Of a stretch of DNA of 17,141 nt, positions 2,371-15,766 are shown piece after piece (the first letter of the stretch is position 1; every line of letters begins with the position of its first letter). The notes below the pieces were generated by a model. That model was not told the origin of the DNA and made no database searches. It worked only from the letters and a program-made list of their open reading frames with translations. Origin of the DNA: an uncultured Lachnospiraceae bacterium (GTDB taxonomy: Bacteria > Bacillota > Clostridia > Lachnospirales > Lachnospiraceae); the NCBI GenBank assembly GCA_937915975.1, contig CALGGL010000145.1, positions 1 to 17,141 on the forward strand, in the 5' to 3' direction. A program made the position numbers and the translations under genes.

Positions 2371-5300
2371 ATGGAAGTTAAAAGAACATGGAAACGAATA
2401 ATAGCGGCGTTCCTTACGTTTGTAATGGCATTCTGCTTTATTCCGAATATTCCGGCGTTAGCTGCTGATATTGATCCTGCAACGGATGAATGGCAAAGTT
2501 ACAAAAGAGAATGTACACCTATAACTGGCGATAATGATGCTTCGCGTATATATGGTGATACAGGTACATATTCTACGCATTATTATTATGATGACAATGA
2601 ATCTGGTGACTTTGAATTGTATTTTAGAATTAATGGTAGCGACTATGGTAGAAACAACAGCAAAAATAATGTAAGTGTACAACATAATAATATTACGTTT
2701 GAAGCACACGCTAGTGGTAATGACATTTATATTAACATTACTAATGCATGGAATGGAGCTGCCGGAACTTATGAATGGTCACTTTATGAACAAGATGATG
2801 ATAATAATACAAGTAGCGATGACCCTATAACTGGTGGTACTTTTACAATTAGTCCACGTCCGGTCACTCTTCATGTGTGGCCTATAGATATGTATTATGG
2901 TGAAAATAATAAGGTCATTCAATATAAATATACGGTTGAGGGTGTTGTTCCTGGTGATTCGGCTGAATCAGTCATTGCAAATGTGTATTCGAGTGCAGAG
3001 GGAACTGTACCTGATGCCAATCATACGGTAGAAATGACAAAGCATACAGTTGGTAAGATTGATAGATATGTTGCCGGAATTAATAAAGGCAATTATTCTA
3101 TATCAGGAGTTTCAACTTCTGATAATTACTCGATTGCAAATGCTGCTGATTTTAATATTCGTCAGGTTGACTTGAGTAAAATAACGGTTTCTTTTAACGA
3201 TAAAATATCAAAAGTATATGATGGTAACGACTTTGAAGTTGCTCCTACATTTTCATATTACAATAAACCGATAACTCTGACCGAAGAAACTGATTATAAT
3301 TTTACCTGGAAGAAGGCAGGTACATCTGAAACTTTTAATGCACCTAATACAGCCGGTGAATATACTGCTATAATTACGGCTTGTGACAGTCAGACAAATA
3401 CAACAAATAATAACACTGGTTTTAATTTTACGGTAGAAAAGAAACCGATAACTATTGTTACAAAAGATCAGGGATATGTTTTTGATGGTACACCAAAGGC
3501 TAAGACAGCGCCGGGCGATTATGATATCGCTGTATTATGCGGAAGAGATAAAAATGGTGATGATATAGCAATTGATCTTGCAGAAACTGACGTCATGTCA
3601 GGATATACTTTAGTTGTCGGAGATGGTTCAGAAGATGATTTAAAGTTCAGTACTTATGTTGCTGATACAGAAGATGCTGACGGAGATGGTGATACAACTG
3701 AAAAGATTAGGGGCTCTAAAGATATTACTTTACTTGAAGACAGTATAGTAATTAATAGAAATGCAGCTTCTGAATCGGGCGATTTACCGGCAGGTACTAA
3801 TGTTACAGACAGTTACGATATAACTATAGTTTCAGAAGGAAAACTTACAATTGCTCCTAAGGAAAATGCAGGAAGCGTAGCTGCTGTTGATACAGATTCT
3901 GAATATTTTGCTAAGATTAATGATGCGGAATATGACTATGATGGCAGCAAAAAATCTTTAGATGATGTTGAATATACAAATATCGATAACGTAATATTTG
4001 CTGCAAGAGACTTAACAGTTGAATATTCTGTAGATGGCGGTAAAACATGGACTACTAAGAAGCCTTCATTTACAGATGCCGGAGTATATGAGATACAATA
4101 CAGAATTGCTCACGGTGCGGATTACAACAACGGTTATCCTAATGCAGATGTACATTGTTATGACTTGCTCTTCTCTGAAATAAAAGGAGAAGCAACTTTA
4201 ACAATAAATGGTACAGCACAAACCGATGCTTCTGTAGCTGTGTTAAATGTAAGTGAAGAATCTGAAACACCTGGTTGGACTTACGGTGATGATATTACCG
4301 GTAAGATTACTGTTAAAGATGCGACCGATGAGGATATCACAAATAAGACAGACTTTACAGGTGGTGAAGCTATAACTTACAGATATATAGCTGGTGAACA
4401 ACCGAATAGTGATGAACATCCGGACGAGAATAATAATGCTTGGAAAGCTGTAGCAGATGATGTAAATGACTCAGGTGAATGCGTAATACCTGCAGGTAAC
4501 TATTGGCTTGAAGCTACAATTCCTGCATATGGCAGTTATGCAGAGACTAAGGTTTATACTCAGTTTACAGTTGAAAAGAAAGCAATAAAAGTAGGTCTTA
4601 ACAGATTTGAAGAGACTGTTGCAGATGGTTTTACAGCTGAGGACTACAATAATACTGAATATGTAAAGAATTCTGAGAAGTATACATATGACGGAGTTGT
4701 CGGAAATGAAGATCCGTTGGATGTAGCAGTAAATCCTGACGATCCTACTGGAGGAAAATACAGCAATGTAAAAATTATTAAGAATTCAGACAATAAAGAT
4801 GCACTTGCATTTAGCAATGAGTTTGATGGAGACGAAGATATTTTTGACAACTATGTAATTACTGTAGTTGATCAAATCGGTGAAGGCGAAGATGCTATAA
4901 TAACCGACGGTCTTATAACTTTAGTTCCGGTTGATATTGATGATACTCTTAAGTCTAATAATAATAAATTTACCGGTACTGTAGGTCGCAATTTCGTAGA
5001 GTATAATGGACCTTGGCAATTAGGTGAAGATGATTCCATCTATTTCCAGTGGACAGGAGAACCGGCAGGCCCTGAAATTAATTCTTTATACCTTAAAAAG
5101 ACAAAAGTAACTGAGCCCCCACTTGAAGATAATGATAAAATTGCACTTACTGCTGACGATTATACTGCTCAGTATTTTAAGTTGGATGATGATGGTTTGA
5201 TAAGTGTTCAGCCTTTGGAGGGACTTCCGACAGATGCAGGTGATTACGTGCTTGTACTTAGCGGAAAAAATGTTAAACCTGGTTCTACCGATGAACCGGT

Positions 5301-8300
5301 AAATGCAGAGGCTAAAGTTTATGGCACAACAGAGATAAAATTCTCTATTACTGATCGTATTTTTGTTTTAGATGTTAGACCGAAAGATCGTGAATATAAG
5401 TTTAATAATACATCTGTTGAGATGGATTTAGAGCATGCAACTTTATATTCATATAATAATCAAACCGGGGACTATGATACGGTTGTAGATGGTGAATTAA
5501 AAGCAGCTATTTTAGCTGATGATAATGTAAAAAATATTACTGGCGAAATGGAAGATGACAGCGTAGGCGATAACAAACCGGTAACTGTTAATGACGGTAA
5601 AAGTGATGTTTCACTTGCAACTGATGGATATGAGAATTGTAAAGTAATTCTTCAGTGTTCTGAAGATATTAATAATGCTGAAGATTATGATCCATGTGCT
5701 GCAACTGTAACTATTACTAAAGCAAGTCTTGATGGTGCAACGTTAACAATCGGAGGTAAAAACCCTCAATCATGGCAGTACGGTGACTTTGAAAATGCAA
5801 TGGCAGAAGCCGTTTTGACACCTGCTGTTCAAAGTGCAGAAATTGATGGTGAAACTGTAGTAGATCCGACATTTGATAATACCGTAACTTATTACTATGT
5901 TGCGACATCGCTTGAATTTGACAGTGGAACTCAGGCTCTTACTTATAACAATAGTTGCAGAACCATCGAAGAGTTACAGGCATGGATTAAGAGTAATAAG
6001 GATAATGTCGGTAAGTATTGGATAAAGGCAGTTATTAGTGACGGAACAAATTATAACGGAACTACAGTCTATGCAACAGTAACTGTTAATAAGAGAAATA
6101 TTACTATAACAGCAAACGAACAATATCGTTATTACATGGATGATTATGTGGCTGATACTGTAGCAACAATGGGTACTAATAATTATACTGTTACTCATGT
6201 AAAGGATGACGGAACTGTAGTTGAAAATAAAGATGCAAACAAGCTTCTCTATAAGGCGAATGAGGGTCTTAATGCTGTTATATCGGGAAATCCAAGCTGT
6301 GCTGATGTTACTTCCGAACGTACACTTGATGTAGGCGACTACGTTATTAGTCAAGGTGACCCTGAAAATGGTGGTCTTAAAGTAGCTGAAGATTACTCAA
6401 ATAATTATGAACTTGTATTTGAAGAAGGAATATTTAGAATACTTCCGCTTCCTCTTGATAATGAGTATGATGATGAGAACTATCCAAAGAGAGAAGCTTC
6501 TGAGGACTTTGAAGTAAAAGTAAGATTAGAGAAGTCGGAATATGTATATGATGGTACAGAGAAAAATCCTCAGTTTACTGTAGTATATACAGACGGAAAT
6601 GAGTCCTATACTATACCTCAGGAACAGTATCAGTATTACTATACATTAGCCGATAAGGATTCTCAGACTACCGTAAAAAATCCTGCTGAATATAATGTAT
6701 ATGTATACAAAGCTAACGGAAAGAATAATCTGAAGGATGGACATATTACCAGAGGAGAATTCGAGATAACCAAAATTCCTGTAACGGTCAAAATTACAAT
6801 GACTCAAGATAGTACACATCCTGTTTTTGATGGGGCAACAACTACAATAAGTGATGTTACATATACCACAGAGCTTCTTTACAGACCTAGTGAAGATGGA
6901 GGCTATGAAGAGATTCCTGATTTGGATTCTTTAAGTACACTTAAAAATAAATTTGCAAATGGCCAGGATGAAGACTATATTGCACAACTTTATGCTATGG
7001 TTCTTCCAAGTACAAATGCAGGTATATATGCTTTAGGAACCGGTGAGAATAATATCAATGTATCAGATTTGAATGATTACCTCGCAAGCCAGATTGATGA
7101 TGATACACATGAGTACTGTCTTGACGATGTTATCTATGAAGGAAGATATGTTGTAGAAAAGGCTCCGCTTAATGATGCACAGGTGTCAATGGTAGAAAGT
7201 GTAGAATACACCGGTGATTATCAAAGACCGGAAGTAACTGTAACACTTACAAGAGATGGTAAAGACATACCTATAACAGACAAAGATTTAGTAATAACTT
7301 ATGGTAATAACAAAAAGGTATCTACAACAGATAGTTCGGCAGTTGTTACAATTAAGCCTTCTAATACCGGAAACTTCGTTCTTGTTGAAGAACCATCAAT
7401 AACAAAGAACTTTGAGATTACACCTAAGGTTATCACTGTAAAGAGCAATCTTGCCCTTGAGGATAAGACGTATGATGGTAATGCACAGATGAAGGTAGTC
7501 GGTGATTATGAAGCTACTGATTTCATTGAAGACGAAGAAGCTGAGCTTGTATTTACTTACGGTGATGACACAGATATCACAAATCTTAATCTTGATGGAG
7601 AAGATGTCATTGAAGTAAGTCAAGGACCGTCTGCGGGAGAAAAAGAAGAAGTAATTAATGTTGAAATTCAAGGTGAAGATGCAACCAATTATAAGTTGGA
7701 GGTAGAATATGCAGATGATGACAATGACGACAATGGTTTATTAATGCGTCCTCTTCTTCCAAACGATGAAATAACTGTTAAAGGAACCATTCTTCCTAAG
7801 GAAGTTAAAGTTGTAAGTACTCTTGCACTTACTGACAAGACTTATGACGGTTCTAAGGCAATGAAAGTTACCGGTGAAGTAACTACAACTGATTTTATTG
7901 ATGGTGATGATGTTGAGATTACCGGTGCAGATGACAGAACCGTAAATGTTGCAAATGCATCAGCAGGAGATAAGACATACACGTTTAATCTTTCACTTAC
8001 AGGTGACGATAAGGCTAATTATAAGCTCACAAATAATGCCATAACTGCAAAGGGTAAGATTAATAAGAAAGATGTAACCGCTACAAGTACATTGGCACTT
8101 GTTGATAAGGCTTATGATGGTAATACAAAGATGTCTGTAACCGGTAGTGTTAAGTTGTCGGGAGTTATCGGACAGGATGATGTTAAGGTTGCAGAATCTG
8201 ATGTGAAGACTGTAAACGTAGCAAGTCCAGAGGCCGGAGATAAGACTTATACATTTAAGTTTACACTTTCGGGCTCCGCAAAGGATAACTACAACCTTAA

Positions 8301-8928
8301 GACAACAAGCGCAACTGCGAAGGGAAAGATTATTTCAACAGGAACACTTACTGAAAAAGGTATTTACTGTATGCAGGTTAGTCCTAATATAGTTGCGGGA
8401 ATGGTTGTTGAAAAGAGCGATGCGAAAGATGTTGTAGAGTACAGATGGGAGGCTATTGATGCCGATCATCCTGAAAAAGGATGGTTTGAGGTAAGCTCAT
8501 GGAAGAAAGACAATGAATGGCTTGACTGGACTCCAAGCAAAGCAGGAAATTATGTAATAGTAGGTCATGCAAGAATTGTAGGAAATCCTAAGACTGAGGT
8601 TACATCTTCGTTCGGTACACCATACAAGGTAATTAAGGGTACAGCCCAGATGCCTAACTCGGACGGTGGTTATCTCATTGGATTAGAAACATACAATAAT
8701 CCTAACCAGTCTTACAGATATGAGATCCTTATACTTGACTGTACATTATATGCACAGGGACTTCCTGCTTGGACATATACTACAAATCCACAGACTGTTG
8801 CTTCAGGAAATGCTTTCTGGACAGTATGGCAGCCTGAATACGGATATTACTGGACATTGTTCAGAGTATATGATGCACAGGGTAACTTAGTTGATGAAGA
8901 GGTATTCGGATTCGCAAATACACAATAG
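2371..8928 (+). CDS. Giant secreted YDG/MBG-repeat surface protein (adhesin-like)
   Basis: 2185-residue exported protein. Residues 1-32 form a Sec signal peptide: basic RTWKR, hydrophobic core, then PALA before ADID. The rest is acidic and rich in Asn, Asp, Thr and Gly, built of beta-type Ig-like modules of the YDG/MBG kind. YDG or FDG motifs stand at residues 283, 371, 523, 773, 1393, 1486, 1701, 1825 and 1915. Two related WxYGD modules start at Trp636 and Trp1135. An Asp-rich loop DADGDGD (435-441) resembles calcium-binding loops. The C terminus (about 1945-2185) is a different, Trp/Tyr-rich region, possibly two related halves (EYRWEA.., YRYEIL..). No LPXTG, SLH, dockerin or C-terminal membrane segment is seen, so the means of surface attachment is unclear. 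AGGAGG (2359-2364), 6 nt before the ATG, fixes the start. A role in adhesion or surface architecture is inference. Confidence 0.85.
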   Translation: MEVKRTWKRIIAAFLTFVMAFCFIPNIPALAADIDPATDEWQSYKRECTPITGDNDASRIYGDTGTYSTHYYYDDNESGDFELYFRINGSDYGRNNSKNNVSVQHNNITFEAHASGNDIYINITNAWNGAAGTYEWSLYEQDDDNNTSSDDPITGGTFTISPRPVTLHVWPIDMYYGENNKVIQYKYTVEGVVPGDSAESVIANVYSSAEGTVPDANHTVEMTKHTVGKIDRYVAGINKGNYSISGVSTSDNYSIANAADFNIRQVDLSKITVSFNDKISKVYDGNDFEVAPTFSYYNKPITLTEETDYNFTWKKAGTSETFNAPNTAGEYTAIITACDSQTNTTNNNTGFNFTVEKKPITIVTKDQGYVFDGTPKAKTAPGDYDIAVLCGRDKNGDDIAIDLAETDVMSGYTLVVGDGSEDDLKFSTYVADTEDADGDGDTTEKIRGSKDITLLEDSIVINRNAASESGDLPAGTNVTDSYDITIVSEGKLTIAPKENAGSVAAVDTDSEYFAKINDAEYDYDGSKKSLDDVEYTNIDNVIFAARDLTVEYSVDGGKTWTTKKPSFTDAGVYEIQYRIAHGADYNNGYPNADVHCYDLLFSEIKGEATLTINGTAQTDASVAVLNVSEESETPGWTYGDDITGKITVKDATDEDITNKTDFTGGEAITYRYIAGEQPNSDEHPDENNNAWKAVADDVNDSGECVIPAGNYWLEATIPAYGSYAETKVYTQFTVEKKAIKVGLNRFEETVADGFTAEDYNNTEYVKNSEKYTYDGVVGNEDPLDVAVNPDDPTGGKYSNVKIIKNSDNKDALAFSNEFDGDEDIFDNYVITVVDQIGEGEDAIITDGLITLVPVDIDDTLKSNNNKFTGTVGRNFVEYNGPWQLGEDDSIYFQWTGEPAGPEINSLYLKKTKVTEPPLEDNDKIALTADDYTAQYFKLDDDGLISVQPLEGLPTDAGDYVLVLSGKNVKPGSTDEPVNAEAKVYGTTEIKFSITDRIFVLDVRPKDREYKFNNTSVEMDLEHATLYSYNNQTGDYDTVVDGELKAAILADDNVKNITGEMEDDSVGDNKPVTVNDGKSDVSLATDGYENCKVILQCSEDINNAEDYDPCAATVTITKASLDGATLTIGGKNPQSWQYGDFENAMAEAVLTPAVQSAEIDGETVVDPTFDNTVTYYYVATSLEFDSGTQALTYNNSCRTIEELQAWIKSNKDNVGKYWIKAVISDGTNYNGTTVYATVTVNKRNITITANEQYRYYMDDYVADTVATMGTNNYTVTHVKDDGTVVENKDANKLLYKANEGLNAVISGNPSCADVTSERTLDVGDYVISQGDPENGGLKVAEDYSNNYELVFEEGIFRILPLPLDNEYDDENYPKREASEDFEVKVRLEKSEYVYDGTEKNPQFTVVYTDGNESYTIPQEQYQYYYTLADKDSQTTVKNPAEYNVYVYKANGKNNLKDGHITRGEFEITKIPVTVKITMTQDSTHPVFDGATTTISDVTYTTELLYRPSEDGGYEEIPDLDSLSTLKNKFANGQDEDYIAQLYAMVLPSTNAGIYALGTGENNINVSDLNDYLASQIDDDTHEYCLDDVIYEGRYVVEKAPLNDAQVSMVESVEYTGDYQRPEVTVTLTRDGKDIPITDKDLVITYGNNKKVSTTDSSAVVTIKPSNTGNFVLVEEPSITKNFEITPKVITVKSNLALEDKTYDGNAQMKVVGDYEATDFIEDEEAELVFTYGDDTDITNLNLDGEDVIEVSQGPSAGEKEEVINVEIQGEDATNYKLEVEYADDDNDDNGLLMRPLLPNDEITVKGTILPKEVKVVSTLALTDKTYDGSKAMKVTGEVTTTDFIDGDDVEITGADDRTVNVANASAGDKTYTFNLSLTGDDKANYKLTNNAITAKGKINKKDVTATSTLALVDKAYDGNTKMSVTGSVKLSGVIGQDDVKVAESDVKTVNVASPEAGDKTYTFKFTLSGSAKDNYNLKTTSATAKGKIISTGTLTEKGIYCMQVSPNIVAGMVVEKSDAKDVVEYRWEAIDADHPEKGWFEVSSWKKDNEWLDWTPSKAGNYVIVGHARIVGNPKTEVTSSFGTPYKVIKGTAQMPNSDGGYLIGLETYNNPNQSYRYEILILDCTLYAQGLPAWTYTTNPQTVASGNAFWTVWQPEYGYYWTLFRVYDAQGNLVDEEVFGFANTQ
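7429..8337 (+). repeat. Three tandem YDG modules in the surface-protein gene
   Basis: Three consecutive coding modules share the pattern VxSxLALxDKxYDGxxxMxVxG, then a conserved AGxKxY/EV segment, then NYxL and a K-G-x-I boundary. They start near 7429, 7801 and 8071, with YDG at residues 1701, 1825 and 1915. The first is longer (124 versus 90 residues) because of acidic insertions. Similarity is clear at protein level and partial at DNA level, consistent with duplication of one domain. Confidence 0.82.
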
Positions 8929-15156: not shown

Positions 15157-15168
15157 TTTGTGATATAC

Positions 15169-15262
15169 CGACAGGCACCTTGACACACTTTATAGGTACA
15201 CGCAAATCCATCTTCCGCTCACGATTTGTTTTGCACCTAAAAGTGTGTCAAGGTGCCTGTCG
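15169..15262. repeat. 94-nt palindromic element (REP/MITE-like)
   Basis: The terminal arms are 22-nt perfect inverted repeats, 15169-15190 and 15241-15262 (left arm begins CGACAGGCACCTTGACAC). Pairing continues inward with one bulge (TAGGT/ACCTA) and again at AAATC/GATTT, so nearly the whole element can fold. There is no U-run for termination and no ORF. Long near-perfect stems of this kind are typical of REP-like hairpins moved by Y1/RAYT transposases or of short MITEs; no transposase is present in the window. It may also stabilise the 3' end of the cluster mRNA. Confidence 0.72.
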
Positions 15263-15382
15263 TTGTATTACACAGAGTAAAATATAGTGGTTTTGAAAAA
15301 CAAGCTGAAAATGGTTTTGACTTTGTTTTCTCAAGTTAAAAAGACTGTTTTTGTGTGAAACGAATAAAGAATGTGGGGAATA

Positions 15383-15410
15383 TTGACGAATAAATTTAAT
15401 TTGTTAAAAT
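15383..15410 (+). promoter_or_regulatory. Predicted sigma-A promoter for a small RNA or leader
   Basis: TTGACG (15383-15388), 16-nt spacer, then TAAAAT (15405-15410). This is the best promoter-like sequence in the 649-nt stretch without a protein gene (15157-15805). Transcription would begin near 15417. Between the palindrome and this promoter (15263-15382) I see only AT-rich sequence without clear features. Confidence 0.6.
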
Positions 15411-15416
15411 AATCAT

Positions 15417-15517
15417 AACGTGTTGATTAGTTCGTCTCCCTAGTGCATTTATACGAATTATCTACACACAATTCAGCATATGTCAAAAAGCGGAATCCGA
15501 GAGGGTTCCGTTTTTTT
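15417..15517 (+). ncRNA. Candidate small RNA (or attenuated leader), about 100 nt
   Basis: The unit has a good promoter just upstream, no credible coding sequence, and a textbook terminator at its end. TAGTTCG (15428-15434) can pair with CGAATTA (15454-15460, one G-U pair), presenting a 19-nt loop that contains TCTCCCT (15435-15441), an anti-Shine-Dalgarno-like C-rich motif of the kind used by several Firmicutes small RNAs. The same transcript could instead be the 5' leader of the AsnC gene, with the terminator as an attenuator. No known RNA family was recognised. Expression is inference. Confidence 0.45.
15485..15517 (+). terminator. Strong intrinsic terminator with GAGA tetraloop
   Basis: CGGAATCC (15491-15498) pairs with GGGTTCCG (15503-15510; one G-U pair) around the stable GNRA loop GAGA, followed by seven T (15511-15517) and preceded by five A. 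There is no protein gene directly upstream, which is the main reason for proposing a small RNA or attenuator here. Confidence 0.88.
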
Positions 15518-15579
15518 GTGTTTTATGGTAATATATTATGTGCGTTTACGGACGGTAATCGGTTTAACTTGATGCATTT

Positions 15580-15766
15580 ACCTATAAGAGAGGATGCGGG
15601 CTATAGTTTTATAGGTAAAATAGGAATTGATACAGCAGGAAGTTTATGGAATTTACCTATAAGAGAGGATGCGGGCTATAGTTTTATAGGTAAAATAAAA
15701 ATTATGACAGCATGAAAACTTAATATTTTACCTATAAGGTAGGTCGAGGATGATAGTCTTATAGGT
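15580..15766 (+). repeat. Three hairpin units at an exact 75-nt period
   Basis: Three 37-nt hairpin units start at 15580, 15655 and 15730, exactly 75 nt apart. Each begins ACCTATAAG and ends TTATAGGT. Units 1 and 2 are identical over 47 nt (15576-15622 and 15651-15697). Unit 3 has a diverged interior but keeps length and arms; a GAGGATG core can be aligned in all three with a shift. The two 38-nt intervals are themselves about 63% identical (shared AAAATA, AATT, ACAGCA), so the whole 75-nt unit was duplicated. In units 1 and 2 a central CTATAG could compete for pairing with the left arm. The array lies directly before the AsnC-family gene. Confidence 0.85.

What the first reader, a model, noticed from the sequence alone, without database searches (positions are those of the whole stretch)
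15580..15766. Exact 75-nt-period hairpin array in front of an AsnC-family gene
Three 37-nt hairpin units start at 15580, 15655 and 15730, with no drift in period. The first two are identical over 47 nt; the third has a changed interior but keeps arm sequence, total length and spacing, and gains a U-run. 75 nt is close to seven helical turns, so a dimer-forming regulator of the Lrp/AsnC type could bind all copies on one DNA face. Alternatively the units act as RNA, with the central CTATAG in units 1 and 2 allowing two exclusive folds and unit 3 acting as terminator. I do not recognise a known riboswitch.
Basis: partly seen in the sequence, partly recalled or inferred. Interest (0 to 1): 0.72.

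Follow-up and report, generated by a model that had tools for sequence, protein, structure and literature searches.

The report
Phased inverted-repeat arrays beside nuclease genes
The repeated hairpins in front of this regulator gene belong to a family of evenly spaced DNA arrays scattered between genes in related gut bacteria; their short arms, not their RNA folding, are what evolution preserves, and two versions of the array each sit beside a gene for the same kind of predicted DNA-cutting protein.

Summary
The array is real: three 37-bp units, exact 75-bp period. It is not an asnC feature. The same arms (ACCTATAA/TTATAGGT) form arrays between unrelated genes in 6 of 37 species of the genus; only two other asnC orthologues carry it. 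In 15 homologous pairs arms differ at 1.1% of positions, interior 18%, linker 17%. Linkers are 38 bp in 81 of 88. No compensated arm change in 105 distinct units argues against a purely structural RNA hairpin.

A geometry-only search found a second family with unrelated arms (GGTAACAA/TTGTTACC) but the same linker: 38 in 60 of 62. One array of it lies in another genus, directly upstream of a gene for a predicted Vsr/I-Bth0305I-like nuclease; the same holds at the orthologous place in G004. A 35-41% identical paralogue follows a family-1 array in three species.

Best reading: BIME/NIME-like dispersed DNA-binding-site arrays, with this uncharacterised nuclease family as candidate partner. Sequence constraint is shown; binding, cutting and spread are inferred; the gene link rests on two independent places. 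AsnC-operator and riboswitch readings are not supported.

The parts
15580..15616 (.). unit 1: arms ACCTATAA / TTATAGGT, 21-bp interior (family 1)
15617..15654 (.). linker 1, 38 bp
15655..15691 (.). unit 2, identical to unit 1
15692..15729 (.). linker 2, 38 bp
15730..15766 (.). unit 3, interior changed, same arms; aligns with the single unit in L002 and the last unit in L005
15806..16318 (+). asnC/lrp-family gene, 170 aa; a neighbour, not a conserved partner of the array

Best explanation
The window array is one copy of a dispersed intergenic element made of phased DNA dyads. Each unit is a pair of inverted half-sites (TTACCTATAAG) about 29 bp apart centre to centre; neighbouring units are held at a 38-bp linker, so the same contacts recur every 73-75 bp (about seven turns). 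Shown: the arms are conserved as DNA sequence at fixed places while interior and linker drift, spacing is conserved, and units multiply in register (1, 3 and 7 units at asnC in three species; 3 and 5 between the same two genes in G004 and G003). Inferred: a protein binds the half-sites as a dimer or higher oligomer. The best candidate is the uncharacterised nuclease encoded directly beside one family-1 array and one family-2 array (a Vsr/I-Bth0305I-like PD-(D/E)XK domain behind a coiled-coil with a beta-hairpin; called OrfX here). In this model each paralogue reads its own arm sequence; cutting or nicking in the array and repair from another copy would duplicate units and spread arrays, much as RAYT transposases are thought to do with REPs; the array in front of the nuclease gene could also control that gene. 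At asnC the array is then a passenger just upstream of the gene, with at most a local effect on expression.
Confidence: 0.5

Rival explanations
1. The arrays are sites of a host DNA-binding protein (nucleoid or chromosome-organising, or a global regulator) unrelated to the nuclease; the nuclease genes are chance neighbours.
For: In-place purifying selection on arms and fixed spacing fit a host function; contexts are mixed (17 tandem, 5 convergent, 2 divergent of 24 classifiable among 32 places).
Against: Restricted to 6 of 37 species of the genus, with whole arrays copied to new places and unit numbers that vary at one place, which is unusual for host architecture; the same nuclease family lies beside both arm families.
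Confidence: 0.25
2. RNA elements: each unit acts as a hairpin of up to 13 bp with a loop of about 20 nt in a transcript (leader, processing site or protein-bound RNA).
For: All five units folded give the hairpin (-11.5 to -15.6 kcal/mol); the window array may lie in the asnC leader; both arm families are complementary; one compensated unit in G197.
Against: 0 compensated changes in 105 distinct family-1 units and 62 distinct family-2 units; outward positions 3-4 pair less often than expected (0.27 against 0.45 at position 4); linker length is kept too; arrays lie in all gene orientations; no Rfam family covers an array.
Confidence: 0.15
3. Operator array for AsnC or autoregulation of asnC.
For: The array ends 39 bp before the start codon; Lrp-type proteins form oligomers that wrap DNA (recalled).
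Against: Same HTH without the array at asnC in L001, L003, L004; arrays beside many unrelated genes; an orthologue and no arrays in G007.
Confidence: 0.04
4. Degenerate CRISPR-like or coding repeat.
For: Period 73-75 with about 37 + 38 split; the first two window units lie in one open frame (15443-15715).
Against: The 37-bp unit is variable inside, so no repeat is constant; linkers recur within family-2 arrays; that frame stops before unit 3, and periods of 73 and 74 and interiors of 19-22 break any frame.
Confidence: 0.01

Closest known systems
REP / BIME with RAYT (Y1 transposase)
   Same: intergenic, regularly spaced palindromes in clusters, species-specific, amplified, with a nuclease-type gene directly flanked by the cognate repeats (PMC2817692: abstract and passages seen)
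   Different: here only about 9 bp of each arm is conserved round a variable 19-21 bp interior; the linker is fixed at 38 bp (inter-REP segments vary substantially in length in the Stenotrophomonas BIMEs of that paper); no Y1_Tnp hit in G001-G005; the neighbouring enzyme is Vsr-like
Neisserial NIME / dRS3 arrays
   Same: conserved inverted arms (ATTCCC-N8-GGGAAT) round a variable interior, in intergenic arrays with segments between them (PMC3898611: passages seen; PMC3733652: one passage seen)
   Different: arms, interior (19-21 against 8 bp) and linker length (38 fixed against 30-160 bp RS elements) differ; whether phages integrate here was not tested beyond
I-Bth0305I, EDxHD/Vsr-like homing endonuclease
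   Same: predicted nuclease fold of the neighbouring gene product; I-Bth0305I is described as dimerising on a target of nearly 60 bp (PMC3943268: passages seen)
   Different: OrfX has an N-terminal coiled-coil with a beta-hairpin; no intron seen; no target or activity known

Membership tests
REP/BIME | intergenic palindromic units in clusters, dispersed in the genome | tested here: met
REP/BIME | cognate RAYT (Y1_Tnp, PF01797) in the same genome | tested here: not met
   no match in G001-G005; in G006 one match, whose locus (L106) holds no arm
REP/BIME | palindrome kept by complementary changes (reported for REPs in PMC2817692) | tested here: not met
   none in 105 and 62 distinct units; one exception in G197
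NIME/dRS3 | ATTCCC-N8-GGGAAT arms | tested here: not met
   arms are ACCTATAA and GGTAACAA
NIME/dRS3 | conserved arms, variable interior, arrays with segments between units | tested here: met
CRISPR | constant repeat with unique spacers | tested here: not met
   unit interior variable, linkers recurring
Riboswitch / known RNA family | match to an Rfam covariance model | tested here: not met
   no family over an array at gathering score; three weak hits far below gathering scores
Lrp/AsnC operator array | fixed position before lrp/asnC genes | tested here: not met
   present in the window, L005 and L002; absent at L001, L003, L004, L006, L007; no unit of the pattern in L008-L030 apart from one off-site match in L009 (some of these loci are cut by contig ends)
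Vsr/EDxHD-type nuclease (OrfX) | PD-(D/E)XK-like nuclease domain | tested here: met
Homing endonuclease | cleaves a cognate target and drives copying of its own locus | not testable with these tools
   needs biochemistry

The most novel reading that the evidence does not exclude
A two-part system: a Vsr-like nuclease gene with its own array in front of it, each paralogue reading a different arm sequence on one shared 38-bp geometry set by the protein (perhaps by its coiled-coil), and seeding phased dyad arrays across the chromosome. This would be a RAYT/REP-like system built on an unrelated enzyme, with orthogonal arm codes coexisting in one genome (both paralogues and both array families in G004).
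Probability: 0.38. Interest if true: 0.85.

Novelty: new variant of a known kind. Interest (0 to 1): 0.62.

Why it matters
Only one enzyme-repeat pairing, RAYT with REP, is known to me (recalled) to explain dispersed palindrome arrays in bacteria. Here two arm sequences without evident likeness share one geometry, and homologous nucleases lie beside both. If the pairing holds, it gives a large hypothetical family (1007 and 2290 relatives found in two searches) a testable substrate, a second origin of intergenic repeat arrays, and a natural set of long-site DNA readers with different specificities.

Tried and rejected
AsnC operator, riboswitch/terminator, coding repeat, CRISPR: see rivals. Y1 transposase (PF01797): no hit in G001-G005. 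IS110 (PF01548): 36 of 37 genomes match at E <= 0.001, 30 over the cut-off; the strong matches (E below 1e-15) are uneven, 5 of the 6 array-bearing genomes (not G005) and 8 of the other 31 by my count; but the fetched IS110 loci of five array-bearing genomes (L225, L226, L228, L229, L232) hold no arm, so I set it aside without excluding it. Transposon ends with these arms: in G001 7 of 64 half-sites lie outside arrays, against 6 for the reversed control. Plasmids: no match to the window array. Viral contigs: 51 stretches hold the family-1 linker pattern, none with a unit; family 2: 0. Global polarity of arrays: not above null. Geometry finder on 1.16 Mb of other DNA (327 kb G006, 145 kb G007, 400 kb G023, the rest small loci): only the known L005 array; on 724 kb of G003 and G004: the two known families, no third. 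Nuclease relatives: six plasmid records match in part (23-44% of the query; not followed up); nine viral loci match in the nuclease part only (not searched for arrays); two phage records, no array. PDB by sequence: nothing convincing. Papers: searches are listings and the rows shown report no such arrays; only open-licence papers are held. (literal arm letters): 125 papers, 10 seen, unrelated by title.

Rows dropped: L090 and L094 (no exact unit); L059 and the single-unit place L096/L002 left out of the counts; L391 fell out because it has no unit perfect in all 16 arm bases. Pairs share members (L055 twice in 76), so they are not independent; L055 lies near a contig end, so only one flank was compared. 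G159, G164 and G321 have one family-2 linker match each and no unit. G023 and G030 share one 36-bp match inside what I read as coding DNA; G027 has one match not followed. Overlap with ORFs: 2 of 32 family-1 places (102 and 104 aa) and 4 of 25 family-2 places (83-128 aa); I take these ORFs as spurious.

Full report
WHAT IS THERE. The window holds three 37-bp units at 15580, 15655 and 15730. Each is ACCTATAA, 21 bp, TTATAGGT; the two linkers are 38 bp. The array ends 39 bp before an asnC-family gene.

NOT AN asnC FEATURE. Thirty loci encode a relative of the protein, two of them distant. Upstream of it the array is present in L005 (7 units) and L002 (1 unit) and absent in L001, L003, L004, L006 and L007. 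The HTH is identical in L001, L003 and L004. G007 has the gene and no unit. The asnC places with arrays show growth in 75-bp steps: 1, 3 and 7 units.

A DISPERSED FAMILY. The arms occur 40, 20, 16, 19, 12 and 3 times in G001-G006 (reversed control 0 or 1), 0 times in G007 and 2 in G008; with a stricter pattern in 6 of 37 genomes of the genus. The linker pattern occurs in 2 of 397 genomes sampled from the family, one being G001 and the other a hairpin without a unit. Arrays have 1-7 units and lie between unrelated genes; 2 of 32 places overlap an ORF of about 100 aa that I take as spurious. One array, of up to four units, has relatives in five genomes, with three copies in G001 beside different genes, so blocks move or are copied.

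WHAT IS CONSERVED. Of 105 distinct family-1 units, 90 have both arms perfect, 13 have one change in one arm, 2 have one decayed arm; none is compensated. In 15 homologous pairs arms changed at 13 of 1140 positions, interior 219 of 1189, linker 240 of 1423, flank 414 of 1443 (pairs share members). In five same-place pairs: arms 3 of 440, interior plus linker 103 of 1033 (taken alone, three pairs give P below 0.03, one 0.04, one 0.18). Linker 38 in 81 of 88, interior 21 in 98 of 119. Positions 3-4 outside the arms are mostly A or T but pair less often than expected. This is what a DNA-reading protein leaves, rather than a stem kept for its fold. Arrays were found through at least one exact unit, so arm decay is somewhat underestimated.

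A SECOND FAMILY FOUND BY GEOMETRY ALONE. A finder that asks only for repeated inverted 8-mers at a 55-110 bp period recovers 29 of 29 known arrays and also found GGTAACA-type arrays beside two family-1 arrays. The pattern GGTAACA/TGTTACC occurs 44 and 38 times in G004 and G003, 2 in G001, 1 in G005, and once each in G023, G027 and G030. In 25 places 60 of 62 linkers are again 38; of 62 distinct units 47 are perfect and 15 changed on one side only. Three composite arrays join family 2 to family 1 over 47 bp. In a sample of 397 family genomes 5 hold the family-2 linker pattern: G001, three single matches without a unit, and G197, which has a real array of five units with 4 of 4 linkers 38. Its first unit has a compensated arm change, the only one seen. 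G197 is not among the 37 genomes of the genus. Departures from 38 include 17, 47 and 48, close to whole helical turns, but also 36, 37, 39, 50, 74, 96, 97 and 104.

MECHANISM, MARKED. Shown: sequence-level constraint on arms, fixed geometry, growth in register, two arm codes, dispersal. Inferred: a protein binds the dyads; OrfX is that protein or part of it; cutting and repair spread the arrays. Not shown: binding, cleavage, any effect on asnC.

KNOWN KINDS. It works like BIME or NIME arrays but meets neither definition (see the membership test). The Y1 enzyme of BIMEs is missing in G001-G005. Hence new variant of a known kind; if the nuclease pairing is confirmed it would be a distinct system.

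Noticed in passing
window 15383-15516: A block with a promoter-like TTGACG-16-TAAAAT and a 14-pair terminator-like stem, very well conserved in L002, L005 and L007: a likely small RNA of about 100 nt upstream of asnC; no Rfam family at gathering score.
   Followed up: partly
window 15159-15272: 33-nt inverted repeats, 91% complementary, 48 nt apart; the part 15183-15248 recurs at L053:811-876 at 88%: MITE-like element next to the array.
   Followed up: partly
L058:2444-2495 and tens of places in G001 and G004: A separate dispersed repeat of about 50 bp that borders some four-unit arrays.
   Followed up: no
L057:493-689 and copies in G002 and G006: Further short dispersed repeats in two related genomes.
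   Followed up: no
L001, last 200 bp before asnC (start 4001): Tandem repeats of about 19 bp (GACGATTGTGGGCTCGAAT-like) in front of asnC where others carry the array: the asnC upstream region is a variable spot.
   Followed up: no
L053:2857-3111: T-box leader (132 bits) in front of a 559-aa gene, on one side of a four-unit array.
   Followed up: no
window 2371-8928: 2185-aa protein with YDG domains and, by my reading, a signal-like start: probably a large surface protein.
   Followed up: no
family-1 linkers, positions 16-23: Weak central dyad YCAG-CTGR in linkers but not in outer flanks; may mark a second contact.
   Followed up: partly
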